DNA of 64,000 bases from positions 248,001 through 312,000 of the forward strand of contig JAUIGE010000002.1 of assembly GCA_030430205.1 (NCBI GenBank). Direction: 5' to 3'. Position 1 is the stretch's first letter, and every line of letters begins with the position of its first letter. The notes beneath the pieces are model-generated. The model made no database searches. It had not been told where the DNA came from and saw only the letters and a program-made list of their open reading frames with translations. Origin of the DNA: Bacteroidia bacterium (GTDB lineage Bacteria > Bacteroidota > Bacteroidia > J057). A program made the translations under genes and the position numbers. Shown here piece after piece: positions 7,892 to 18,917 of this stretch.

Positions 7892-7968
7892 TCCTCCTTA
7901 GCTCAGTTGGTTAGAGCGGTTGACTGTTAATCAATAGGTCCTTGGTTCGAGTCCAAGAGGAGGAGCCA
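7892..7968 (+). tRNA. tRNA-Asn (GTT), with encoded CCA
   Basis: A complete cloverleaf can be drawn. The acceptor stem TCCTCCT/AGGAGGA is at 7892-7898 and 7958-7964, the D arm GCTC...GAGC at 7901-7917, and the anticodon stem GTTGA/TCAAT encloses loop CTGTTAA with anticodon GTT at 7926-7928. The T arm CTTGG/CCAAG has loop TTCGAGT. The discriminator is G at 7965, then CCA. The 3' half (7921-7966) is repeated at 17167-17212, so the gene is the target of an integrated element. The intact copy is on the left, so integration restored the tRNA. Confidence 0.97.
7921..7966 (+). repeat. attL: 46-bp direct repeat in the tRNA-Asn 3' half
   Basis: These 46 bases, from TGACTGTTAATC in the anticodon arm to GGAGGAGC, are identical to 17167-17212. 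The repeat bounds a 9.2-kb segment that carries a tyrosine integrase, as expected for site-specific integration into a tRNA gene. Confidence 0.93.
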
Positions 7969-7977
7969 CTGATAATG

Positions 7978-8013
7978 AAGCACTTACAAGCAAAAGCTCG
8001 TAGGTGCTTTTTT
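7978..8013 (+). terminator. Hairpin terminator after tRNA-Asn, inside the element
   Basis: AAGCACTTACAAGC pairs with GCTCGTAGGTGCTT, allowing G-U pairs, across an AAAA loop, followed by a T run. It ends tRNA transcription and shields the element's left end. Confidence 0.7.
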
Positions 8014-8064
8014 CGTATTTGCATACAATTTGACATACAAAACGCCCTTTAATTGCCTAAAATC

Positions 8065-9126
8065 ATGGATTTAGTAAAAAAAGATTACCCTAATAATCCT
8101 TTTCATAAGGAGCTGCATCAAAAGCTTAGTGAACTTGGTGCTGATTATGATGTCAGCTATAAGTTTGCAGAACTATTGGCAAGGGTCAACCATTTTTTAG
8201 CAAAACATGATCTGAGGGCAAAAGTTGCCTATGTGAGAGACATCCCTGATAAAATTGAATCGGATTTAAATGATATCGAACGAGTCCCTATCAAAAAACA
8301 TCTTTGTGATTCAATCATTCAAATTTTAGAAAGGGAAAGCAACACGTTTGGCCTTACTGGAAAAACAATAATAAAAAAATTGCAGAAGCTTTCCAGGCAG
8401 TATACAATACCATCTGCTTTAATCGGAGCTACTCCTAATCTTCAACAATTGTATTTAGAGTTAAGGGCGCAAAAGATTCCTCCCATTCAATCCGAAGACT
8501 TTGTTAATAAATTAAGATTCTTCAATGGGGAAATGGGTTGTTTTACTGCCTATCGTTATGCAGATGCCAATGGTTGTCGGGAAGAAGTAGAGAAATTAGC
8601 TAAGAGTTTTTTAGGTGATCTTAAACTTCTCTTTTATGAAAAAGTGAAAGAAGGAAATCTTTTGATATTGGATAACCCTAGTCATTGGGATAAAGAAGAA
8701 GCTTATCTGAAGATCAATGAGGAAATTGATACGCTGATTGCAGGCAAATTTGATGAACCAGAAGATGAGAAGAAGTCCTATACAACTTTAAGAAAACAAG
8801 TCCTTATTCATAATTATCTTCATTTGTTCGAAAAGTTCCCAAATAAACGGGAAGAGGCAACTGCTAGTGCATACTATATTTTCCTACAAAGTCTTTTTGA
8901 TAGAAATGCTGATAACATTAAAAAGAGTTATGCAGACTATTTTGAATGGACCCAAAAACCCAAATTGATTGAGGAATACAAAAAACCTCGAAAGGCCCAA
9001 GCGAGGAAACTCTTTATTCAAGACCTAGAAGAAGTAAAAGCCCTTTTTCAATCAATTGGATATAATGAGTGTGTAGAGCAAATTGAGGCTGATATTGAAG
9101 AAAATTTTAAATTTTTCAAAGATTAG
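8065..9126 (+). CDS. Hypothetical protein of the integrated element
   Basis: I do not recognise this 353-residue protein. It is largely helical and charged, with no signal peptide and no membrane segment. A TTG lies four codons upstream in frame, but the ATG at 8065 (MDLVKKDYPNNPFHKELH) is the better start. The middle contains LRFFNGEMGCFTAYRYADANG and the end is strongly acidic. The base composition is AT-rich compared with the chromosome, in keeping with recent transfer. It is the first gene inside attL and runs in the same direction as the HTH and replication genes, so it may belong to the element's replication or control module; that is a guess from position only. Confidence 0.7.
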   Translation: MDLVKKDYPNNPFHKELHQKLSELGADYDVSYKFAELLARVNHFLAKHDLRAKVAYVRDIPDKIESDLNDIERVPIKKHLCDSIIQILERESNTFGLTGKTIIKKLQKLSRQYTIPSALIGATPNLQQLYLELRAQKIPPIQSEDFVNKLRFFNGEMGCFTAYRYADANGCREEVEKLAKSFLGDLKLLFYEKVKEGNLLILDNPSHWDKEEAYLKINEEIDTLIAGKFDEPEDEKKSYTTLRKQVLIHNYLHLFEKFPNKREEATASAYYIFLQSLFDRNADNIKKSYADYFEWTQKPKLIEEYKKPRKAQARKLFIQDLEEVKALFQSIGYNECVEQIEADIEENFKFFKD

Positions 9127-9170
9127 GGTACACCCCAACCCCCACCCCAAAGCAAACCACCCCTATCATT

Positions 9171-9192
9171 GCTGGAAATAAATATTACCAGC
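9171..9192 (+). promoter_or_regulatory. Stem-loop with a TAATATTAC-like loop, candidate replication origin
   Basis: GCTGG (9171-9175) and CCAGC (9188-9192) form a perfect 5-bp stem around an AT-only 12-base loop, and the 3' side reads AATATTACC. This recalls the nick-site hairpin of some rolling-circle replicons. It ends one base before the start codon of the HTH gene, so a translational control hairpin or an operator is an equally fair reading. Confidence 0.35.
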
Positions 9193-9193
9193 G

Positions 9194-9544
9194 ATGAAAA
9201 ATCATTTCGTATTTACAGAAGTAGAAACCATTGAAAGGATCGTTTCCGAGAAAGTGACAGAAGCCGTAAAAAACGCTTTGCTCTCTTTGCCATCCTTTGA
9301 AGAAGGCTTTTCCAAAATATTCTCTTTTGACCAAGCCTGTGATTTCTTAGGGATCAGCAAATCCCATGGCTACAAACTGACAAGCCAAAATAAAATCCCC
9401 CACAGCAAGCGAGGCAAGCGCCTGTATTTTGATCGTGAAGTCCTGGAAGCCTGGATGCTGGAAAAGCGTGTCAAGACGCGGGATGAGATCGCGCAAGAGC
9501 TGAGTTTGTCCATGCCGAAAAAGAGAAGGGGACAATTATATTAA
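9194..9544 (+). CDS. Excisionase-like helix-turn-helix DNA-binding protein
   Basis: The protein has 116 residues. Residues ~45-95 form a MerR/excisionase-type winged helix (HTH_17): FDQACDFLGISKSHGYKLTS, then NKIPHSKRGKRLYFDREVLEAWM. Small proteins of this type bind bent DNA and act as recombination directionality factors or as regulators of replication genes. It lies 34 bp upstream of the replication initiator and is probably co-transcribed with it. The N-terminal ~40 residues are an extra amphipathic stretch (ETIERIVSEKVTEAVKNALL), typical of the Bacteroidota versions. Whether it controls excision or replication cannot be told from sequence. Confidence 0.82.
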   Translation: MKNHFVFTEVETIERIVSEKVTEAVKNALLSLPSFEEGFSKIFSFDQACDFLGISKSHGYKLTSQNKIPHSKRGKRLYFDREVLEAWMLEKRVKTRDEIAQELSLSMPKKRRGQLY

Positions 9545-9578
9545 GTTCCTTCTGTGGACACTTTCTGTCCCCAAGGTA

Positions 9579-10514
9579 ATGGTAGATTCCATTAATATAT
9601 GGTATCCCTTTTGGGATTCGAGCGATGGTTCGCTTGAGAAGCTGTCTTCTTCATTGAAGGATTGGAGCAAAATTGAAAAGGGGAATGATTTCGTGTCATA
9701 TCGTGGAAGATTAGATAATCTCCAGGTAAGTATAAGCGGGCGCGGGATTCGAGTTGTGGGAAGTGTTCCTAAATTCCTGTTTGGAAACAACTTATTCGAA
9801 ATCCAACAAGGTGATGTGAAATTATTTGCCGAAAAATTGAATGATGCTTTGGGAATAGATATGAGAAAAGGGAAACTGACTCGCCTTGATTTTGGGAATA
9901 ATCTTATTTGCAAATATCCCCCTTCGATGTATCTGGAGCATTTTGCAGATGCCCGGTATTTTACCAAAAAAAAGTATACGAGTGGAATTTCCTACCTAAA
10001 CAAGAATCGCCATTTTGCTTTGTATGATAAAATAGTTGAGGCAAAAAAAGGGGGGCAATTTATTCCTGCTCCATTCGAGCATAAAAATGTATTAAGATCA
10101 GAAGCCAGGTTAATGAATTCTGCATCCATCCTTAAATACATGAAAAAGGAATTGTATTTGGAGAACCTTGCTGACGATACTGTTTGGGAATACATGCCCA
10201 AAGTCTACCAATCCTTTTATTTTCATATCAATAGAAAAAAAGAAATGGGATACGATCTGTCACAAATTACCCAACCCAAAGATTATTATGATCTGCTTAT
10301 GATTCAGGCAATCCAATCTAAAGGAGGGTTGGAAGCTGCGTTGAAAGAAATAGATAACCTGAAAAAGCAGAACTCTTTTTCTGATAAAAGGTGCTATGCT
10401 CGGGCAAAAAAGAAGATTCGCACCTTATATGAAATCGGGACAGATTTGAGTGATAAATCTATTTTGGAAGAACTGGATGCCAAAGTAAAAGCAGCTTTCC
10501 AAAAAAGTGGATGA
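9579..10514 (+). CDS. Phage/plasmid replication initiator, gene II/X family
   Basis: This 311-residue protein has the hallmarks I associate with the gene II/X family of rolling-circle initiators. These are GSVPKFLFGNNLFE (~60-75), LTRLDFGNNLICKYP (~100-115), FALYDKI (~147) and a following block of hydrophobic and aromatic residues (VYQSFYFHIN). These proteins nick one DNA strand through a tyrosine and drive rolling-circle replication of filamentous phages and small plasmids. The start is the ATG at 9579. It is convergent with the restriction-modification gene, with 4 bp between them. Its presence in an integrated element suggests a phase of autonomous replication. The assignment is by motif memory; the nicking tyrosine was not pinned down. 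Confidence 0.7.
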   Translation: MVDSINIWYPFWDSSDGSLEKLSSSLKDWSKIEKGNDFVSYRGRLDNLQVSISGRGIRVVGSVPKFLFGNNLFEIQQGDVKLFAEKLNDALGIDMRKGKLTRLDFGNNLICKYPPSMYLEHFADARYFTKKKYTSGISYLNKNRHFALYDKIVEAKKGGQFIPAPFEHKNVLRSEARLMNSASILKYMKKELYLENLADDTVWEYMPKVYQSFYFHINRKKEMGYDLSQITQPKDYYDLLMIQAIQSKGGLEAALKEIDNLKKQNSFSDKRCYARAKKKIRTLYEIGTDLSDKSILEELDAKVKAAFQKSG

Positions 10515-10518
10515 TCTA

Positions 10519-13500
10519 CTATTCCCCCATAAAATCCACCTCATCTATCTCCTTCATAATCCTATCCGTCTCCGTCAACGCCTTGATAATGCGCATATAA
10601 TGCTTCACATCATCATAGGATAATTCCCTGCCTTGGCGGTCTTTCAACCACTTCTGAGCGGGTTGAAAGCCTCCGACATAGAATTCCCAAGCGATAAGTG
10701 GAACGCCTTCAAAATATACCTCATCATTAATATAAACCCGCTCTTGAGAAATATCAAAGGACTTCTTCCCGATCCTTTCTACCCCCATATTATCTCCACC
10801 ATCAAACCGAATATGATGTTGGTCGAGTTTGGGAGATTCCATCAGGTGAAGTTGTCGTAGTTCTTCACCAAGTTTTCCTAATTGCCAAAAAGTTTCTTGA
10901 TCGGCGGGATATGGAATTTTAGGAAAATCTATTTTTAGTTCACTTTTAAATTCTTGACGATATTTAGGACTATGTAAAATCGCATATATATAATCTAATA
11001 AATTTAAAGGACTAAAGGAATCGAATTTAGGGCCTTCAACTATTTCCTGGTCAACAATAAGCTTTAGCCCTAAAATATTTTCAATTTTTTTTATGTGGAT
11101 ATTGTTGAAGTTTGGTCGGCACAAAGGCTCCAATTGGTTACTAAGGCTCAATTGGCCATCTTTTTCCTTGTAAACATAAAGCGGAAAACAATATGTTCGT
11201 TCTTTTGTCTGAAGAGAAATAGAATTCCCTTCCCCCACCAATCTTGATATAAAAACGTGTTGGTAATCAAATGTACTTTGTTGTCGGCATGATAAAAGAT
11301 TGTAATTTGGATTATTAAGATGGTGGATAAGAGTTGGTCTGGAATAAGCGATAAAACCTTTGGATTTATTAGGCAATAAGGTAAATCTATTATCAAAGGG
11401 ACGATACATAATCCGCCCAATTGCATGATTGTTCTTCTTTATATCTTCAATTGCTGTTTTTAATACCCAATCACGAGAATCTGATTTAATCTGGTATTTT
11501 TGTCTTAAAGTTTCTTCTGAAAGCTGAGTGAAATCTGATAATACATTCTTCAAAGATTCTTGAGTAAAATGAATCGCAACGTTGTCATTCTGTGAAGAAG
11601 AACCTACAGAAGATACAGGGAATAGGTCATGGATTGAAAGCCACGAATTATATAATTCACTTTTCTTTTTAAATGGTATAAAAAAATAATTGGGAGAAAT
11701 AGGGTTTAGGTAAGTCCAATTTATTTCGCTAATATTTTCTTTTTCTAAAAAATGGTACTTTTCTTCTCTCTTACCAACAAAATCTCTGTGATAGACTTCG
11801 GCATGTGTTTTTGAGATTGAAGTCTTTACCATTAATGATATACAAACTCCTTGTTGAATATCGAATACATTCTTATCTGGTGTACCATCTTTAGTAATTT
11901 CCCTTTTCTTAGAGCTTCCATGCAAATCAAAAATGTAAATTTTTTCGAATGATTCTAAAAGGTGCTTCCTCATTTGTCGATGAATGATTCCATCAATAAA
12001 TGAGTTATTTGAAATATAGGCGAAAACTCCCTTGCCTCTCTTCTCAATAAAATTTTCGGCAAAACGAATAAACTTAATATAATCATCGGATAGTGGGTTT
12101 ATGTTTCGTTCATTTAAATCTTTTTTATAATCCTTCATTAAGTGTTCAATCCAGGCCGATTTATTTGAGCTGCTTATACTATATGGAGGATTTCCAATAA
12201 CACACATAATCGGCATATCCTTTTTTATCCGATTCGCCTCATCACTCTCTCGGCTTAACCAGGATGAAAAAAGCGTACCCGTATCTGGATGCGCTTCTTC
12301 CAGGCTATTGGTCAGGTACACACTCAGTCGTTTTTTAGGCTCAGCTCCCGTCTCTCTCAATGCCAAATCCAGCTTCAAATGTGCCATGGCATAAGATGCC
12401 ATTAACAATTCAAAACCATGAATCCTTGGAAGCAAATCATCATTTACATACTTATTCCATAGAGCTGGCATGTGGCCCATTTTGCTATGGATTTCCTGTA
12501 TCACACGCGCTAAAAAAGTGCCTGTGCCTGTGGCCGGGTCGAGAACTTGTACTTTGTGGATTTCTCTTTCGATCTCCTTAAAACCGCTTTTGGTTCGCTT
12601 GTCAGGGGTTTGAGTTTGTACTGTGATCGTGGTTTTGCTGGTATCTGCCAGGCCATCAGCTAGGCCAAATTCCGTTTTCAATACCTCATCCACCGCCCGA
12701 ACGATAAAATCAACCACAGGCTCAGGCGTGTACCATACCCCACGGGCTTTCCTGAGTTTGCTATCATATTCCGCCAAAAAATCTTCATAGAAGTGAACAA
12801 TCGGGTCATTGCGTTTGCTCGCTTTTCCATAGCCCGCTAATATTTCTCTGACATTGCAAGCCCTGAATACCTCTACCAAATCATCTACAATCCAGACCAA
12901 TCTATCATCCAAATCCAGCGCTCCTATTTGGCCGAATAGCTGACGCAAAAAAGGATTGGTTTTAGGTAGCAATTCTGCCGCTTCCATCCTGCTAAAGTCC
13001 TCTAAGGTGTAATCATTCAGCCTTGCAGCAAATAAGCCATAGGTAATAGTCTGAGCATAGACATCTGCAAAGCTTTCTTCTGTCATATCGTGAATCAGTA
13101 TCCTTCTGAAAGATTCTAATTGATTTCTCAAATCTCCCCCTTGGTCATCTTCATCATGCAAAGCATTAAATATGACATCTTTTATCATACGGGCTTTCGC
13201 TGCCATCATAGAAGCTAGTTTACTGGAAGATTTGATGGTTTGCCCATAGGTGAGGGTAAAATTTAATAGACGATCCTGAAGGCGCTTAAAATCGCTCCTG
13301 TGAGCTTCTATATTGCTGCCATCGGCCGTGCCTATGGATATGGTATCTACTAGCTCATCTTCACGATAAAAGCGAAATTCGAGGTAATCCGTCAGGATGA
13401 AATTATTTCCCAATCCCCCACCAAAATATTTCTTCACCTGGGCTTTGGTATCCTTTCTATCCAGGATATTGGGGATGATGTCTTTTGCTTCGATGTAGCC

Positions 13501-13692
13501 AATGGGGATTTCCTTTTTGGTGAGAATGTAATCAGGCGCTCCCACCTTCACCCGCTTGGGTTCATTGGTGACGGTGGTATCTGTGGCGATACTTTCTATC
13601 AGTTGTTGGAGGTATGTGCGATAGGTGTGTTCTGTGGCTATACCTTGGCGATACTTCGCGGCTACTTCTTCAAAATACTGTTCTATTGTCAT
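10519..13692 (-). CDS. Type ISP/IIG-like restriction-modification enzyme (single polypeptide)
   Basis: A single chain of 1057 residues from the ATG at 13692 (MTIEQYFEEVAAKYRQG). A TTG 21 codons upstream is a less likely start. The N-terminus has a PD-(D/E)xK nuclease motif: PD at 53-54, then GYIEAKD with E68 and K70. A helical linker follows. The N6-adenine methyltransferase core has WYTPEPVVDFIV (~320), motif I LDPATGTGTF (~384-393) and motif IV GNPPYS (~500-505). The last ~400 residues should be the target recognition region. There is no helicase domain between nuclease and methylase, unlike LlaGI/LlaBIII, so this is the short form. It should cut unmodified DNA and methylate the host. It is the main cargo of the tRNA-Asn element. 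Confidence 0.87.
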   Translation of the reverse strand: MTIEQYFEEVAAKYRQGIATEHTYRTYLQQLIESIATDTTVTNEPKRVKVGAPDYILTKKEIPIGYIEAKDIIPNILDRKDTKAQVKKYFGGGLGNNFILTDYLEFRFYREDELVDTISIGTADGSNIEAHRSDFKRLQDRLLNFTLTYGQTIKSSSKLASMMAAKARMIKDVIFNALHDEDDQGGDLRNQLESFRRILIHDMTEESFADVYAQTITYGLFAARLNDYTLEDFSRMEAAELLPKTNPFLRQLFGQIGALDLDDRLVWIVDDLVEVFRACNVREILAGYGKASKRNDPIVHFYEDFLAEYDSKLRKARGVWYTPEPVVDFIVRAVDEVLKTEFGLADGLADTSKTTITVQTQTPDKRTKSGFKEIEREIHKVQVLDPATGTGTFLARVIQEIHSKMGHMPALWNKYVNDDLLPRIHGFELLMASYAMAHLKLDLALRETGAEPKKRLSVYLTNSLEEAHPDTGTLFSSWLSRESDEANRIKKDMPIMCVIGNPPYSISSSNKSAWIEHLMKDYKKDLNERNINPLSDDYIKFIRFAENFIEKRGKGVFAYISNNSFIDGIIHRQMRKHLLESFEKIYIFDLHGSSKKREITKDGTPDKNVFDIQQGVCISLMVKTSISKTHAEVYHRDFVGKREEKYHFLEKENISEINWTYLNPISPNYFFIPFKKKSELYNSWLSIHDLFPVSSVGSSSQNDNVAIHFTQESLKNVLSDFTQLSEETLRQKYQIKSDSRDWVLKTAIEDIKKNNHAIGRIMYRPFDNRFTLLPNKSKGFIAYSRPTLIHHLNNPNYNLLSCRQQSTFDYQHVFISRLVGEGNSISLQTKERTYCFPLYVYKEKDGQLSLSNQLEPLCRPNFNNIHIKKIENILGLKLIVDQEIVEGPKFDSFSPLNLLDYIYAILHSPKYRQEFKSELKIDFPKIPYPADQETFWQLGKLGEELRQLHLMESPKLDQHHIRFDGGDNMGVERIGKKSFDISQERVYINDEVYFEGVPLIAWEFYVGGFQPAQKWLKDRQGRELSYDDVKHYMRIIKALTETDRIMKEIDEVDFMGE

Positions 13693-13807
13693 GTCGTAAG
13701 GTAGGTTACTTGGAAAAAAAGGCTTCTCCTGATTTTCAAAATATGTGAGAATCAAATAAGGTAAAAACCACCAAAAAACCTTATCTTCTCTAAAGATTTA
13801 GGTTATC

Positions 13808-14419
13808 ATGGGCCGAATAGGTACATCCCCAATATTAGTAGAAGATTGCAGAATCATCCCCCTCAAACGCTTGAGAGAGCTGGGTTTTCTGGAACCCAAC
13901 CGATTTATCAAATCGAATATTCACTTCTCCTATAATGGAGAAAGAACCGCCAGCATTGATTTAGAATCTTCCACCTATCCGGGTGATTCTTATATCAGAT
14001 TAATCTACATTTTTACTGAAAGTAAAAAGGAAGTGGATTACAAAATCCCATTGGTCCGGGTTGCGTCAAATTTGGGGATAGGCTTTCGCTATTACTTTGT
14101 TTGCCCCTACACCCATAAGCAATGCGTAAAACTCTATATGCCTCCTCATGAGCATTACTTTTTGCATCGGGAAGCCTTTCCCTACCTTGTCTATGATAAG
14201 CAGACACAAAGCAAGTATTGGCGCTCCTGGGATAATAATCTCATTGCACTATTTTTCAAATGGGATGATTTGCAAAGAGAAATTGAAGAGAGGCCCAAAT
14301 ACACAAAATTATTTTACCGTGGAAAACCTACGCCTTTTTTGCAAAAGCTCATCAAAATGGAAAATCGTTTGGTAGGTGTCACGAAAGGTGATCTGCAAAG
14401 GGCATTGAATGAATTTTGA
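13808..14419 (+). CDS. Hypothetical protein, first of a tandem paralogous pair
   Basis: The protein has 203 residues. It is clearly related to the next gene: both share LKRLRE.G.LEPNR, the KxPLVRV.SNLG.GFRYYF.CP block, HREA.P.L.YDKQ and YRG.PTP near the end. The central block matches the layout of zinc-ribbon proteins found near integrases in other phyla (RPWF.CP..GRR...LY, then F.CR.C..L.Y.SQ), but of the second CxxC only FLHREAFP is left. The first pair survives as CPYTHKQC. It is divergent from the restriction-modification gene across a ~115-bp gap. Function unknown; a nucleic-acid-binding role would be a guess. Confidence 0.75.
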   Translation: MGRIGTSPILVEDCRIIPLKRLRELGFLEPNRFIKSNIHFSYNGERTASIDLESSTYPGDSYIRLIYIFTESKKEVDYKIPLVRVASNLGIGFRYYFVCPYTHKQCVKLYMPPHEHYFLHREAFPYLVYDKQTQSKYWRSWDNNLIALFFKWDDLQREIEERPKYTKLFYRGKPTPFLQKLIKMENRLVGVTKGDLQRALNEF

Positions 14420-14430
14420 AATTGAGAGCC

Positions 14431-15042
14431 ATGAGAATGACAGGAAGAAACTATCCCCTATTGGTAGAAAGTTGTAAAACCTTATCTCTCAAAAGACTGA
14501 GAGAATGGGGATACCTGGAACCCAACCGGATTAAATCAGGGGGAATCATTTTCACTTCACGCGGCAAGGAATCAGGAAGCATGCAAATCCTGTCTTCCAC
14601 TTTTGAAGGTAAAGAGTACATTCGGTTGATGTATTACTTTGCGAATACAGGAGAAGAGTTTGATTACAAAGTCCCCTTGGTTCGGGTCCCTTCTAATCTT
14701 GGGAAAGGCTTTCGCTATTATTTCCTTTGTCCTGTGACCTCCAGGCGCTGCATGAAACTCTATCGCCCTCCCATGAAAGATTTATTCCTGCATCGGGAAG
14801 CTTATCCCAGCTTGATCTACGATAAGCAAGTGGCGTCTAAGAAGATGAGGGTTTGGGAGAAGCTGGTAATTGGATTGGTGAAGAAGGAAGATGAGCTTTT
14901 TAAGGAGATTTTGAATAGGCCTAAATATGCGAAGCATTATTATAGGGGGATTCCTACGCCTAAGATGAGGCGGTATTTGAAGGTGAGGGATGAGTTGAGG
15001 CGGTATTCGCGGGAGGATTTTGAGCGGGTGGTATATGGGTGA
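14431..15042 (+). CDS. Hypothetical protein, second of a tandem paralogous pair
   Basis: This 203-residue protein is the paralogue of the gene before it and starts 11 bp after that gene's stop, from the ATG at 14431. A TTG at 14416 would overlap the preceding stop. The order of motifs is the same: LKRLREWGYLEPNRI, a beta-rich middle (SMQILSSTFEGKEYIRLMYYF), VPSNLGKGFRYYFLCP, RRCMKLYRPP, FLHREAYPSLIYDKQ and YYRGIPTPKMRRYL. The C-terminus is very basic. The pair is surely one transcription unit born by duplication. The zinc-ribbon cysteines are partly lost, as in the sister protein. Function unknown. Confidence 0.75.
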   Translation: MRMTGRNYPLLVESCKTLSLKRLREWGYLEPNRIKSGGIIFTSRGKESGSMQILSSTFEGKEYIRLMYYFANTGEEFDYKVPLVRVPSNLGKGFRYYFLCPVTSRRCMKLYRPPMKDLFLHREAYPSLIYDKQVASKKMRVWEKLVIGLVKKEDELFKEILNRPKYAKHYYRGIPTPKMRRYLKVRDELRRYSREDFERVVYG

Positions 15043-15103
15043 GTTTCTGAAAACTCAGCTATAAAAACATACAAATATCTCTTAAAGGCACTAAATTAGA
15101 GTA

Positions 15104-15685
15104 ATGAGAAAGATAATTATATACACAATCATAATACTCATATATGGTATTGGCTATTCCCAACCTATATCATTAAGTGATATTGAGAGCGGAATAAAAG
15201 ACAATGATGCCTTAATTGAAAAACTACTTGGAAAAGAATGGATATTCATAGGGAAAAAAATAGAAACCCATTGGGCAGATGCATTTCCTAAAGAGTATAA
15301 CTATTTAAAAGATTCGAAGTCTCCAAATCATATTATGACTCAAACAGGTTTTGTCAGTGATAGGAGCTTTGCAATGGTGATTACACTAATTGAAAACTCG
15401 CCAAACCTATTGCCATATATTGGGATAGACTTGGAAATAGATGAAGACTTAAAAATAATATATGAGTACATTGAGAGGCATATAAAAATTAATTATGAGA
15501 AGACTAATTTTTATTATAAAGAAAAATTATGGCTAACGGATAAGGGGGGATATATAACTGAATACAAGCGTAAATTCAATAGTATGGAAGGAGGATTTGA
15601 GGGGATAAGTGTACATACATATAAAGTATTTAACTCTACCACGGGAAAAATGAAGTACTACCTAATCTTTCAACCTTATAAATAA
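15104..15685 (+). CDS. Small secreted hypothetical protein (element cargo)
   Basis: The protein has 193 residues and begins with a signal peptide or signal anchor (MRKIIIYTIIILIYGIGYSQ) whose end resembles a Bacteroidota signal peptidase site. The rest alternates polar and aromatic residues (WIFIGKKIETHWADAFPKE; FNSTTGKMKYYLIFQPYK) and has no motif I know. The gene is the most AT-rich in the element, which points to a foreign origin. It lies between the paralogous pair and the integrase. It may act outside the cytoplasm, perhaps as a cargo or superinfection function, but nothing in the sequence decides this. Confidence 0.65.
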   Translation: MRKIIIYTIIILIYGIGYSQPISLSDIESGIKDNDALIEKLLGKEWIFIGKKIETHWADAFPKEYNYLKDSKSPNHIMTQTGFVSDRSFAMVITLIENSPNLLPYIGIDLEIDEDLKIIYEYIERHIKINYEKTNFYYKEKLWLTDKGGYITEYKRKFNSMEGGFEGISVHTYKVFNSTTGKMKYYLIFQPYK

Positions 15686-15758
15686 AAAAGTCCATCCGAA
15701 AGGCGCTGGTTATTTCATCAATCGGCTTATTAGGCCGAAATCATTCCCAAACATAATC

Positions 15759-17003
15759 TTAAACTTCCTTGTCAGACTTCGGAATCAACAAATTAGCATA
15801 CTCCCGCTTCATCTTATCTTCAAAGCTATCCAAATAGTTCTCAGTCGTCTTCAAATCACTATGCCCCAAGCTCTCACTAATAAAGGCGATAGAAGCCCCT
15901 GAGCGCTTCAATACAGTCGAAAAAGAGTGACGGGCTGAATAGGTGGTTACATTCTTTTCTATGCCTACATCGGCCGCTATGCGCTTCATATACTTATTGA
16001 CGGTCTTGGTTGCTTGCCTGATTAATGAGAGTTCGCGCTGTGGACTGATTCCTTTTTCCAGGATCGGGAAAATATAGGTATCTGGTTTGGCGGGTTTGTT
16101 TCCCCATTGTTTGATAATGGCTTTGGCTTGTGGGGTCAAAAAAGCAGTAATCGCCTTTTGATTTTGGCGGTTTGTCCTTTCCGTTTTCGCCCGAATGAAA
16201 GAAAGCATATCCCCTTCCACATTCTTGTATTTCAGCAAGGCTATATCTTTGAGGTTGATGCCGTTGCAAAAGTAGCTAAACATCCACAGATCACGTGACC
16301 GCTCTTCTGTACTTCCCTTGGGAGCAGGATAGGAAAATATCTTTTCGATCTCTTCCATGGTCAAAGCCTTTTTGACGTTCCTTCCTGCTGGGATTTGATA
16401 TTTATGTTTTCCAAAAGGGTATTGAGCTTGAGGAACTACGCTCTCTCTGATAGCCTGATTGTAGATCGCTCTTAAATTGCGGAGGTAGATACCAACGGTG
16501 GTGAGGGTTTTATCCTGATTAAGCATCCATTTTTCATATCCTTCTAAAAACTCAACTGTGATCTCATCGAAGGGTAACTTCTTTCTGGAAACAAAAGCCT
16601 TGAAGGAAGTCAGGCTTGCCGAATAGCTGTATGCTGTTCCCGCTCTGCCATCTGCATCCAGCTTATCAATGTAGGCTTGAAAAGCGGCAAAGACATCTCT
16701 TATATCATGCTTCTTTGAATTGTACTGCTTTTCAAAAGCCTGAAAGCTAAAGGGGGAAAGATTGCGGATGACTTCCCAGGCCTTTTCTTCAATGCTGGTA
16801 AGTTGAAGCCTCAATTGCTTGTAATCATTCCTTGGGCGATCTCCCATTACTTTGTCATAGTCTTCTGCTGTCAGGGAAAGACCTGTCCCATAGTATTTTT
16901 GCTTTCGATGAAAAGTTAGCCTGAGTTTCAGGGGGAAGGTGCCATCTTTCTTAGCTCTTCTTGTATCCAGGATGATAGCGGTGCTTACAGTATTGTTTAT
17001 CAT
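15759..17003 (-). CDS. Tyrosine-type integrase of the tRNA-Asn element
   Basis: The protein has 414 residues from the ATG at 17003 (MINNTVSTAIILDTRRAKKDG); a longer frame upstream is unlikely to be used. It has an arm-binding N-terminus (GTFPLKLRLTFHRKQKYYG), a SAM-like core-binding domain (~100-200) and a catalytic domain with SARHSFSTVLKRSG, LGHSDLKTTENYLDSF and the nucleophile Tyr in ENYL. Where Arg I usually stands, the sequence reads FCNGINLKDIALLK without an obvious Arg in place. This version is common in Bacteroidota elements as far as I recall. The gene reads away from attR, ~160 bp from it. It should integrate and excise the element at tRNA-Asn. Confidence 0.93.
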   Translation of the reverse strand: MINNTVSTAIILDTRRAKKDGTFPLKLRLTFHRKQKYYGTGLSLTAEDYDKVMGDRPRNDYKQLRLQLTSIEEKAWEVIRNLSPFSFQAFEKQYNSKKHDIRDVFAAFQAYIDKLDADGRAGTAYSYSASLTSFKAFVSRKKLPFDEITVEFLEGYEKWMLNQDKTLTTVGIYLRNLRAIYNQAIRESVVPQAQYPFGKHKYQIPAGRNVKKALTMEEIEKIFSYPAPKGSTEERSRDLWMFSYFCNGINLKDIALLKYKNVEGDMLSFIRAKTERTNRQNQKAITAFLTPQAKAIIKQWGNKPAKPDTYIFPILEKGISPQRELSLIRQATKTVNKYMKRIAADVGIEKNVTTYSARHSFSTVLKRSGASIAFISESLGHSDLKTTENYLDSFEDKMKREYANLLIPKSDKEV

Positions 17004-17166
17004 GTATGCAAATAAATAATTTGCATACAATTTGCAATACAAAAATCACATAAATGAACTATTGAAAAGAAATGAAAAGAAGACGTTTTATTTGTAAGTA
17101 TCTGATTATTAGGTATTTTTAACAAATATGCAAGATGGATAACAAGCTCAGAGAATAGCCTGATTG

Positions 17167-17212
17167 TGACTGTTAATCAATAGGTCCTTGGTTCGAGTCC
17201 AAGAGGAGGAGC
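17167..17212 (+). repeat. attR: 46-bp direct repeat of the tRNA-Asn 3' half
   Basis: The sequence is identical to 7921-7966. It lacks the tRNA 5' half, so it is not a working tRNA. It is followed at once by what was probably the original tRNA terminator. Confidence 0.93.
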
Positions 17213-17215
17213 AAG

Positions 17216-17243
17216 AGCCATCCATTTATGGGTGGCTTTTTTG
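17216..17243 (+). terminator. Hairpin terminator, original tRNA-Asn terminator displaced by integration
   Basis: AGCCATCC pairs with GGGTGGCT (one G-U) across a short loop and is followed by TTTTTTG. Its place directly after attR suggests it once ended the tRNA-Asn transcript before the element inserted. Confidence 0.7.
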
Positions 17244-17468: not shown

Positions 17469-18917
17469 CTATGTTTCTTTTTTTCTCTTCAGGATTTTGG
17501 TTGTCCATAAAATGGTTTCGAATCGTTCAAGGCCTCTTTTGAATGTAATAGGCCCTGGAGGTCTTTGTGAGGCATATCCCTTCCATCCCCCCAGTCTTGC
17601 TATGATCCAAGCAGCCCATCTGAGATCCTGTGGTTCATATGGGTTTTGCTGTTTTTGAGTTTTTCCTTCTAGCTCAGGGAGTATTTCTTTGAGACAAAGT
17701 TGTTCCTCAGCATCAAAGATGATTTCGATAGGTAGAGGCTGCGTAGCCTTTTTTGCCTGATCAAGTTGGAGTACTTTGGCCGCAGCAGTCATAGCGATAA
17801 TGGATTGTTTGACGATTGCTTTAGGACTTTGAAACTGGGTTGCCTCAATGTCCAGTCCTTGTTTCTTAAGTAGCCTGAAAAGCTGTTCAATATGCCATCT
17901 TTTCAAATATAAGCTTACAATATACCATGCTTCCTCTATGGTCTGGATAGGTCTACTTGTAAGTAGACGCCAGTGGAGTGGCTCCTCGCCGAGTGGCACA
18001 TATAGAGAGTCTTCTAACACTTCAATAGCATAGAGAGGCCTACTTATGGGTTGGCTATCTTTACCCATGTTAGCGGGAAAATTCGGCTGAAAAGGGAAAT
18101 AGCGCAACTGAAGGCTGGTTTTTCGAGCTGTTCTCCGCTTCCGTTTCCCACTTGATTTGCTGTAATGATCAAGTTGACGTAACTGAACTTGTTTGCAGGA
18201 TTGCCATGAGGTTGACTCAAAAAGAGAGTTTAAACGCCCCTGTTGGCCCGTATCAATTCTTCTGCCTTTTCGATTAACCCGCGAACGAATCAGGATTTCG
18301 GCCCGCTCCATTTCAAGAATATGTGCCATCACGGCATAGCTGTCGCCCCCTCGATCCATCACATAGGTCACGCGTTGCGCCTCGGTGAGCTGCTTGTGGC
18401 TATTGGAAGCTGCGAGTGCCCAAGCATAAGAAGCAAGCTGTTCAAAAGGCAAGGCACGCCGTTTGATACGTTGCTTGAGCGTAATTTCCCTTGTCGATTC
18501 TGTAGGGGGAACACAGTGGTGAACGATATCTGAGAGCCCATAAACCAAGTCACTATGCTCATCAATTGCTAAACCAGCAAACAGCGAAAAACCGGCCGAT
18601 TTATTGTTGGCAGAAACCCCTATCCACGTATCTGGGCCATGGGTTTCAACCCGATAACGGGCGTCACTAGGAGCTATCGTGATCGAGGTCTCGTCGATCA
18701 GCACAAGAACATCTCGACCTTGAGAGAAGCTTGATCTGAGTCGGCTACACACCGATATTAACTCCCCTACTTCGACTGCTGGATTGTTGATAAAACGATA
18801 GGCTTGCATACTTTCGGAAGAACTGTTGCAAAACCGATGAACCGTACTACTAAGCCGCTTGCTCATCTTCTCTAATATCGAGGCAAAGGCGCGTTGACGA
18901 CGGGAATCACCAAAATC
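17469..18917 (-). CDS. IS4-family (Tn5-like) DDE transposase
   Basis: The first ATG is at 18866 and gives 465 residues. The conserved family N-terminus (DFGDSRRQRAF) lies upstream in the same frame at ~18917-18885, and the frame stays open to 18989 without an ATG. The start shown is therefore a minimum for the conserved domain. Either a non-ATG start is used or a frameshift has hit the 5' end. DDE motifs are LVLIDETSI (first D), VTYVMDRGGDSY (second D) and the YREK signature YLKRWHIEQLFRLLKKQG with the catalytic Glu. YRFINNP and WIIARLGGW also match the Tn5 transposase layout. It is bounded by the IS ends, with only ~17 bp after the stop. Confidence 0.88.
   Translation of the reverse strand, partial: DFGDSRRQRAFASILEKMSKRLSSTVHRFCNSSSESMQAYRFINNPAVEVGELISVCSRLRSSFSQGRDVLVLIDETSITIAPSDARYRVETHGPDTWIGVSANNKSAGFSLFAGLAIDEHSDLVYGLSDIVHHCVPPTESTREITLKQRIKRRALPFEQLASYAWALAASNSHKQLTEAQRVTYVMDRGGDSYAVMAHILEMERAEILIRSRVNRKGRRIDTGQQGRLNSLFESTSWQSCKQVQLRQLDHYSKSSGKRKRRTARKTSLQLRYFPFQPNFPANMGKDSQPISRPLYAIEVLEDSLYVPLGEEPLHWRLLTSRPIQTIEEAWYIVSLYLKRWHIEQLFRLLKKQGLDIEATQFQSPKAIVKQSIIAMTAAAKVLQLDQAKKATQPLPIEIIFDAEEQLCLKEILPELEGKTQKQQNPYEPQDLRWAAWIIARLGGWKGYASQRPPGPITFKRGLERFETILWTTKILKRKKET

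What the first reader, a model, noticed from the sequence alone, without database searches (positions are those of the whole stretch)
7921..17212. 9.2-kb tRNA-Asn element with a gene II/X initiator and a restriction enzyme
46-bp direct repeats, an integrase beside attR and a restored tRNA show a complete site-specific insertion. The replication gene is of the filamentous phage/plasmid type, yet there are no virion or transfer genes. This looks like an integrating rolling-circle replicon or satellite that carries a single-gene restriction system as its payload.
Basis: partly seen in the sequence, partly recalled or inferred. Interest (0 to 1): 0.6.

Follow-up and report, generated by a model that had tools for sequence, protein, structure and literature searches.

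The report
Integrated mini-replicon carrying a restriction enzyme
A 9.2-kb DNA parasite sits in a bacterial tRNA gene with its own enzyme for cutting itself in and out, a phage-style enzyme for copying itself, and an anti-phage restriction enzyme as cargo; some relatives carry a phage-packaging gene, so it may travel by hitching a ride in other viruses.

Summary
The 46-bp repeats are exact, tRNA-Asn is intact at the left, and a tyrosine integrase lies at the right end; 25-bp arm-type sites lie inside both ends. Element G+C is 38.6%, flanks 48-49%. The Rep is a distant relative of gene II / Rep_trans nickases: the window protein has no credible Pfam hit, but 7 of 12 homologues match Phage_CRI, the catalytic residues of four of five published motifs are present, and rolling-circle initiators are the best fold matches in the PDB (Z 11-12). 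The payload is a helicase-less single-chain type ISP/IIG restriction-methylation enzyme. No virion or conjugation gene was found.

I found 38 loci with this Rep. The usual order is integrase, variable gene, HTH, Rep, small gene. In 18 loci without E/F genes, a gene behind Rep was tested: 4 are clear terminase small subunits, 2 weak. That favours a helper-phage satellite over a mobilizable element, but the window's element has no recognisable terminase gene; it has an E/F gene pair, a family also seen in a prophage-like region. A same-genus genome holds apparent remnants with the same arm site at its tRNA-Asn. Excision, replication and packaging are inferred. New variant of a known kind.

The parts
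7892..7968 (+). tRNA-Asn (GTT), intact; its 3' end is supplied by the element and encodes CCA
   Evidence: ARAGORN; comparison of attL, attR and two related genomes
7921..7966 (+). attL copy of the 46-bp direct repeat (anticodon region to 3' end of the tRNA)
7978..8013 (+). terminator-like hairpin and T run at the element's left end
   Evidence: read by eye in the sequence
8018..8042 (+). left integrase arm-type site TTTGCATACAATTTGACATACAAAA
   Evidence: 2 matches in window, mean 0.00 in shuffles
8065..9126 (+). gene A, 353 aa, unknown; only weak family matches (phrog_5127 8.6e-6, PF02739 0.0073) and no relative in the loci held
9194..9544 (+). gene B, 116 aa, helix-turn-helix / excisionase-family protein (HTH_17, TIGR01764)
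   Evidence: HTH_17 4.3e-12; TIGR01764 3.9e-9
9579..10514 (+). gene C, 311 aa, Phage_CRI/Rep_trans-type replication nickase; D3, R102xD104, Y149xK151xxE154, R173xE175
10519..13692 (-). gene D, 1057 aa from the ATG (longest ORF runs to 13755), single-chain type ISP/IIG restriction enzyme-methyltransferase
   Evidence: PADLOC REase_MTase_IIG 2.4e-303; Type_ISP_C 3.4e-76; LlaBIII, LlaGI, 7lo5; motifs and start
13808..14419 (+). gene E, 203 aa, protein of unknown function with a CPxTxxxCxKLY core, family seen in related elements and a prophage-like region
   Evidence: 50% identical to F; homologues
14431..15042 (+). gene F, 203 aa, paralogue of E
15104..15685 (+). gene G, 193 aa, unknown, possible signal peptide, no relative in the loci held
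   Evidence: signal peptide by eye
15759..17003 (-). gene H, 414 aa from the ATG (longest ORF to 17042), tyrosine integrase (Arm_5, SAM_5, Phage_integrase)
   Evidence: start
17020..17044 (+). right arm-type site TTTGCATACAATTTGCAATACAAAA
17167..17212 (+). attR copy of the 46-bp repeat
17217..17242 (+). terminator-like hairpin and T run, probably the tRNA's original terminator, now beyond attR
   Evidence: by eye; a hairpin and T run also follow tRNA-Asn in L043 and L045

Best explanation
It is a complete integrative mobile element that inserted by its tyrosine integrase into the 3' half of tRNA-Asn. Shown in sequence: exact att repeats, arm-type sites, restored tRNA, integrase, HTH/excisionase-type protein, a protein with the fold and catalytic residues of Phage_CRI/Rep_trans nickases, and a single-chain restriction-methylation enzyme. 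Inferred: the HTH protein and integrase excise it as a circle; the nickase starts rolling-circle replication and makes multimers; a helper phage packages the DNA, as in small phage satellites (PICI, PICMI); and the restriction enzyme protects the host, and so the element, from other phages. It belongs to a lineage spread through the Bacteroidota group whose usual order is integrase, variable gene, HTH, nickase, then a small gene that is a terminase small subunit or an E/F gene in part of the loci, then cargo.
For: Att structure. Nickase: Phage_CRI in 7 of 12 homologues, best 1.8e-17; R102, D104, Y149, K151, E154, R173, E175 invariant in A4, D3 missing only in a truncated row, matching motifs in PMC5714925; AlphaFold model pLDDT 83.9; rolling-circle initiators rank 1-3 of the 50 rows shown, 4cwe Z 12.2, 4cwc 11.8, 4cij 11.0, next row 7.7. 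Family: in 38 Rep loci an integrase-profile ORF lies within 7 kb in 35 and a HTH upstream in 30 (one of the 35, L091, is only a partial integrase-like ORF). Terminase small subunit behind Rep: L027 3.2e-13, L029 4.5e-16, L081 5e-16, L031 6.3e-19, weak L079 6.6e-4, L080 0.03. E/F homologue right behind dnaB in a Bacteroides prophage-like region with a tape-measure gene. The same type of restriction enzyme is cargo in L085 (49.8% identical, inside 25-bp repeats 10.75 kb apart). Where end repeats were seen, relatives are 4.0-10.8 kb long.
Against: No terminase, capsid-remodelling or other known phage-hijacking gene in the window's element. A terminase small subunit was clear in only 4 of 18 loci tested without E/F. 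No relative of its Rep or F among 50,697 phage records, nor of its Rep among 72,556 plasmid records; none in IMG/VR by pattern searches that reach close relatives only; a packaged element might be expected there. Rep_trans-type nickases also serve as conjugative relaxases (PMC5704250). Its gene order is unusual: 30 of the 34 other loci with an integrase have it upstream on the same strand; here it is at the far end on the other strand. The window protein itself scores below every Pfam cut-off, and the Foldseek TM-scores to the initiators are modest (0.44-0.50).
Confidence: 0.55

Rival explanations
1. Integrative and mobilizable element (IME): the Rep is a non-canonical relaxase that nicks an oriT, and the excised circle is moved by a conjugative element's pore, with rolling-circle replication only for maintenance.
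For: In streptococci 118 of 144 IMEs carry putative relaxases related to rolling-circle initiators, and the MobT proteins of Tn916 and ICEBs1 do both jobs (passages of PMC5704250). That review's table also lists type II restriction-modification among IME genes.
Against: MOBT relaxases join a HTH domain to the Rep_trans domain (PMC11389934 passage); here no HTH family matches Rep and the catalytic D is residue 3, so nothing precedes the catalytic domain; but the helical C-terminal part was not tested for a HTH. No coupling or mobilization gene found. Some relatives carry a terminase small subunit gene in the next position. No oriT search was made.
Confidence: 0.2
2. Autonomous integrating rolling-circle plasmid: it lives as a circle at times and spreads by transformation or vesicles, with no dedicated helper.
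For: A 6,969-bp circular Hymenobacter plasmid, pHsw3, carries a homologue of this Rep (profile E 1.5e-23), of E/F (4.7e-37), a Dam-type methylase and an HNH nuclease. A 5,017-bp contig (L089) with integrase, HTH and Rep has a 9-nt end overlap and arm-like repeats about 180 bp apart across the ends, as a circle would (by eye).
Against: pHsw3's Rep homologue lacks the lysine of YxKxxE (YDQ) and the plasmid also encodes what looks like a Rep_3-type initiator (read by eye), so it does not show that this Rep drives replication. L089 may be a contig end effect.
Confidence: 0.15
3. Stranded or decaying element: integrase and Rep are intact but it no longer moves and is kept for the restriction enzyme.
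For: No terminase gene, atypical order; the same-genus genome's tRNA-Asn has what look like remnants (two arm-site cores 1.57 kb apart and a HTH gene; no rep found in that genome and no integrase by profile in the 20 kb held).
Against: 46-bp repeats without a single difference, both arm sites intact, all eight genes open.
Confidence: 0.1

Closest known systems
PICMI satellites of Vibrionaceae (PMC10803314; abstract and passages read)
   Same: Few genes: three core proteins for excision and replication, with alpA and prim named; defence systems including restriction-modification beside prim; small size; no terS found; packaged as concatemers.
   Different: PICMIs sit beside fis in Vibrionaceae and use prim; this element uses a Phage_CRI/Rep_trans-type nickase and sits in tRNA-Asn of a Bacteroidota-group genome. 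No helper is shown here.
PICIs (phage-inducible chromosomal islands; PMC6092414 seen only in the search listing with the start of its abstract)
   Same: Integrase, regulator and replication module (recalled); terminase small subunit in some relatives of this element.
   Different: Replication protein type differs (recalled); no terminase gene in the window's element; no induction shown.
Filamentous phages and their gene II/X initiators, Phage_CRI (PF05144)
   Same: Nickase family, shown through homologues.
   Different: No morphogenesis ATPase, coat or other virion gene found.
IMEs with rolling-circle-type relaxases (PMC5704250; passages read)
   Same: Tyrosine integrase plus Rep_trans-related nickase; restriction genes known as cargo.
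   Different: The passages describe them for streptococci/Firmicutes; no MOBT-like N-terminal domain here.
Type ISP enzymes LlaBIII and LlaGI; type IIG enzymes (7lo5)
   Same: Single polypeptide with N-terminal nuclease motif, N6 methylase and Type_ISP_C specificity domain.
   Different: 1,057 aa with no helicase domain matched; LlaBIII is 1,578 aa and LlaGI 1,406 aa in the PDB chains, 7lo5 1,029 aa.

Membership tests
Phage_CRI / Rep_trans nickases | Profile match to PF05144 or PF02486 | tested here: inconclusive
   Window protein none; 7 of 12 homologues match PF05144, best 1.8e-17, and 1 of 12 PF02486 at 0.0096; PF05144 search of own genome 0 hits
Phage_CRI / Rep_trans nickases | Motifs D, RxD, YxKxxE, RxE (motifs from PMC5714925) | tested here: met
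   D3, R102xD104, Y149xK151xxE154, R173xE175; the fifth, motif II, not clearly placed
Phage_CRI / Rep_trans nickases | Crescent TBP-like fold of the pT181-family and Geobacillus initiators | tested here: met
   Ranks 1-3 Z 12.2, 11.8, 11.0; TBPs follow at 7.7 and below
Phage_CRI / Rep_trans nickases | Nicking and covalent attachment to DNA | not testable with these tools
   needs protein
Phage satellite (PICI/PICMI type) | Integrase, regulator and own replication gene without virion genes | tested here: met
   with Rep
Phage satellite (PICI/PICMI type) | Packaging-redirecting gene such as terS (PICI) | tested here: not met
   None in the window's element; 4 clear of 18 relatives without E/F. 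PICMIs also lack it
Phage satellite (PICI/PICMI type) | Induction and packaging by a helper phage | not testable with these tools
   no helper known
Inovirus | Zot-like morphogenesis ATPase (pI) and coat genes | tested here: not met
   No match among 8 genes
IME with MOBT relaxase | HTH domain fused to Rep_trans domain | tested here: inconclusive
   No HTH Pfam match and no N-terminal extension (D3), but the C-terminal helical part was not tested; that MOBT's HTH is N-terminal is recalled
IME | oriT and transfer by a conjugative helper | not tested
   no oriT search was made
Single-chain type ISP/IIG restriction-methylation enzyme | Nuclease motif, N6 methylase motifs and specificity domain in one chain | tested here: met
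   GAPDY at 72, EAK at 89-91, DPATG 406, NPPY 522 of the 1078-aa ORF; Type_ISP_C 3.4e-76; PADLOC 2.4e-303
Type ISP proper | Helicase/translocase domain | tested here: not met
   No helicase family in the Pfam scan; LlaBIII aligned only from its residue 828 on

The most novel reading that the evidence does not exclude
A phylum-wide, undescribed family of phage satellites in the Bacteroidota group that copies itself with a filamentous-phage-type nickase, with genomes down to about 4-5 kb. One branch uses terminase small subunits to enter helper capsids; the window's branch has replaced them with the E/F protein, an unrecognised packaging or replication adaptor also used by prophages. Its integrases have moved between tRNA genes, the 3' end of mnmE, and in one genome a CRISPR repeat.
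Probability: 0.3. Interest if true: 0.75.

Novelty: new variant of a known kind. Interest (0 to 1): 0.5.

Why it matters
Phage satellites are best known from Proteobacteria and Firmicutes (recalled). If these elements are satellites, the Bacteroidota group has its own family built round a different replication enzyme, it can carry restriction systems as cargo, and it gives a small, testable model (integrase, HTH, nickase, one phage-type gene) for the least a satellite needs. The E/F gene, found directly behind Rep in four relatives where others have a terminase small subunit, becomes a concrete candidate for a new packaging or replication adaptor.

Tried and rejected
Gene A as an integrase or 5'-3' exonuclease: weak matches only, no relative in the loci held, not believed. 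Inovirus: rejected, no virion gene. E/F by fold: the AlphaFold model is poor (pLDDT 53.6, 4 sequences) and was not searched. Small genes behind Rep in L097, L099, L101: weak matches (0.013-0.041) to phage families of unknown function; a homologue in a Bacteroides phage is called DUF5681 and in the two phages looked at lies within about 2 kb of the integrase, with no large terminase annotated in the stretch shown, so I do not count them as terminase. L102 (8.3e-7) and L100 (0.013) match only phrog_15125, unknown. tblastn of the L102 and L079 genes against phages: no match. L105 and the loci with no clear gene behind Rep were not tested for terminase.

C5 contig end as the missing integrase end of the own-genome tRNA-Phe element: it has an integrase and a 33-bp arm-like match (94%), but no copy of the tRNA end was found there, so the link is left open. 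Folds absent prove nothing. No control was computed for how often an integrase lies within 7 kb of a random gene. Literature: 9 searches of the open library gave no paper that, by title and listing, describes such Bacteroidota elements; PMC12324425 (abstract, outline and passages) is about other elements, and PMC6813254 (passages) starts from the pI gene. PMC6563490 (passages) is about CRISPR arrays carried by elements, not elements inside arrays. Subscription papers are not held.

Rows dropped: A1 (12 rows) left out L029, L031 (Rep split in two frames) and L038; the copies L095, L096, L098 and L103 (contigs of the same lengths as those of L028, L026, L079, L080) were not counted again. F was given from 14428, three bases before its ATG.
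Full report
What is there. The 46-bp repeats at 7921-7966 and 17167-17212 are identical. The only tRNA found in the window, tRNA-Asn, is whole at the left repeat. A tyrosine integrase with Arm, SAM and catalytic domains ends the element at the right. A second, 25-bp pattern lies just inside both ends (2 found, mean 0.00 in 100 shuffles); these look like integrase arm sites. The element is 38.6% G+C, the flanks 48.5% and 49.4%. The junctions show which side is original: the right flank continues GCAAG behind the tRNA, and L043 (same genus) and L045 (same family) continue GCAAA, each followed by a hairpin and T run, while the left junction reads GCCA. So the element seems to have brought its own tRNA 3' end, CCA included, and its own hairpin (hairpins by eye).

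The replication protein. Homologues were found by whole-genome search: 14 of 395 genomes sampled from the phylum, 2 of 22 of the order, 17 of 395 of the class with a profile; the samples overlap and each counts the window's own genome. Of 12 aligned, 7 match Phage_CRI, best 1.8e-17. The residues described for Rep_trans and Phage_CRI proteins (PMC5714925 and PMC4797284, passages read) are present for four of the five motifs: D3, R102xD104, Y149xK151xxE154, R173xE175; motif II I could not place clearly. The AlphaFold model (pLDDT 83.9) matches the rolling-circle initiators 4cwe, 4cwc and 4cij first (Z 12.2, 11.8, 11.0) and then TATA-binding proteins at 7.7 and less, a likeness that PMC4797284 itself reports for that fold. 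Foldseek ranks the two staphylococcal chains first (E 2.9e-7 and 6.0e-7), with modest TM-scores of 0.44-0.50. It is very probably a nickase; activity is not shown.

The cargo. Gene D is a single-chain restriction-methylation enzyme: PADLOC REase_MTase_IIG at 2.4e-303, Type_ISP_C at 3.4e-76, sequence relatives of LlaBIII, LlaGI and 7lo5 in the PDB, and matches in 237 plasmid records at E 1e-20 or better, 42 of them over at least 80% of the query, the best at 48.7% identity and called type ISP. No helicase part was matched. Two other loci of this family hold a relative: L085 at 49.8% identity, inside its repeats, and L086 at 53.8% over the 420 residues held, 8.6 kb from Rep and with no element ends found.

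The lineage. In 38 loci with this Rep (36 in genomes, 2 on records of the plasmid collection), an integrase-profile ORF lies within 7 kb in 35, a HTH gene upstream in 30, E/F within 5 kb downstream in 8, and D in 3. The three without integrase are L025, L084 and L104; L025 and L104 are near contig ends. The commonest order is integrase, variable gene, HTH, often a 140-190-aa gene, Rep, then a small gene. The window differs: its integrase is at the far end and on the other strand, whereas 30 of the 34 other loci with an integrase have it upstream on the same strand. The second copy in the window's own genome (27% identical) sits beside tRNA-Phe and has the same run of HTH, Rep and F with other cargo. 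Eight loci have a gene with a GTPase motif and the C-terminus FCIGK, which I take for mnmE from memory, directly before the integrase. Named hosts include Gracilimonas, Balneola, Saprospiraceae, Kapaibacterium and an assembly called Chitinophaga pinensis. End repeats seen around some elements give lengths of 4.0 to 10.8 kb (inspected).

Why a satellite. In 18 loci without E/F a gene behind Rep (two genes in L094) was scanned against PHROGs. It is a terminase small subunit in L027, L029, L031 and L081 (E 3e-13 to 6e-19), weakly in L079 (6.6e-4) and L080 (0.03), and in the other 12 (L030, L034, L037, L082, L087, L094, L097, L099, L100, L101, L102, L104) not recognised as terminase. A terminase gene in a small element suggests mobilization by phages (PMC11389934 passage). 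In the window's element E and F lie downstream of Rep beyond gene D; E/F homologues lie directly behind Rep in L025, L028, L041 and L085, behind dnaB in a Bacteroides prophage-like region with a tape-measure gene, in a Parabacteroides element with another replication module, and on plasmid pHsw3. I found no locus with both E/F and a recognised terminase small subunit, but apart from the window only a few genes per locus were scanned.

Remnants next door. The one same-genus genome in the search has no Rep, but the 12-nt arm-site core occurs twice behind its tRNA-Asn, 42 bp and 1.6 kb downstream, followed by a HTH gene of the same family (profile E 2.7e-19). So this site has probably been used before by elements with the same integrase specificity.

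What stays open. No excised circle was looked for in reads. Tblastn found no relative of the Rep or of F in the phage records and the IMG/VR pattern searches found none; those pattern searches reach close relatives only. The mobilizable-element rival is real because the same protein fold serves as relaxase in Firmicutes. I put the satellite reading at 0.55.

Novelty. Each part is known; the combination (Phage_CRI-type nickase, tyrosine integrase, terminase small subunit or E/F, defence cargo, in the Bacteroidota group) did not appear in my searches of the open library, which is not proof that it is unpublished. I file it as a new variant of a known kind.

Noticed in passing
The two halves of the split repeat share the 7-bp core TTGAAAG, so precise excision would restore it: the CRISPR repeat appears to be the attachment site. 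None of the 17 spacers checked matches the element. No integrase as close (E 1e-60) in the 86 other genomes of that family.
   Followed up: partly
   Followed up: partly
L091:1-6969 (NZ_CP007146.1, Hymenobacter swuensis plasmid pHsw3): Small circular plasmid with a Rep homologue lacking the catalytic lysine, an E/F gene, a Dam-type methylase plus HNH nuclease, and ORFs on both sides of the record's start that by eye look like an integrase arm domain and a Rep_3-like initiator.
   Followed up: partly
window:6891-7439: Left of the tRNA, stretches 71% and 85% identical in DNA to a region holding a 279-aa gene near an integrase on contig C5 of the same genome: possibly relics of an older mobile element.
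   Followed up: partly
window:17244-17434: Repeat sequence right of attR with more than ten related places in the genome (71-90% identity), next to an IS4-family transposase at 17469-18866.
   Followed up: no
L026, L028, L033, L080, L082, L100, L101, L102: Eight relatives sit directly behind a gene ending in FCIGK, by memory mnmE, so its 3' end looks like a frequent insertion site of this family.
   Followed up: partly
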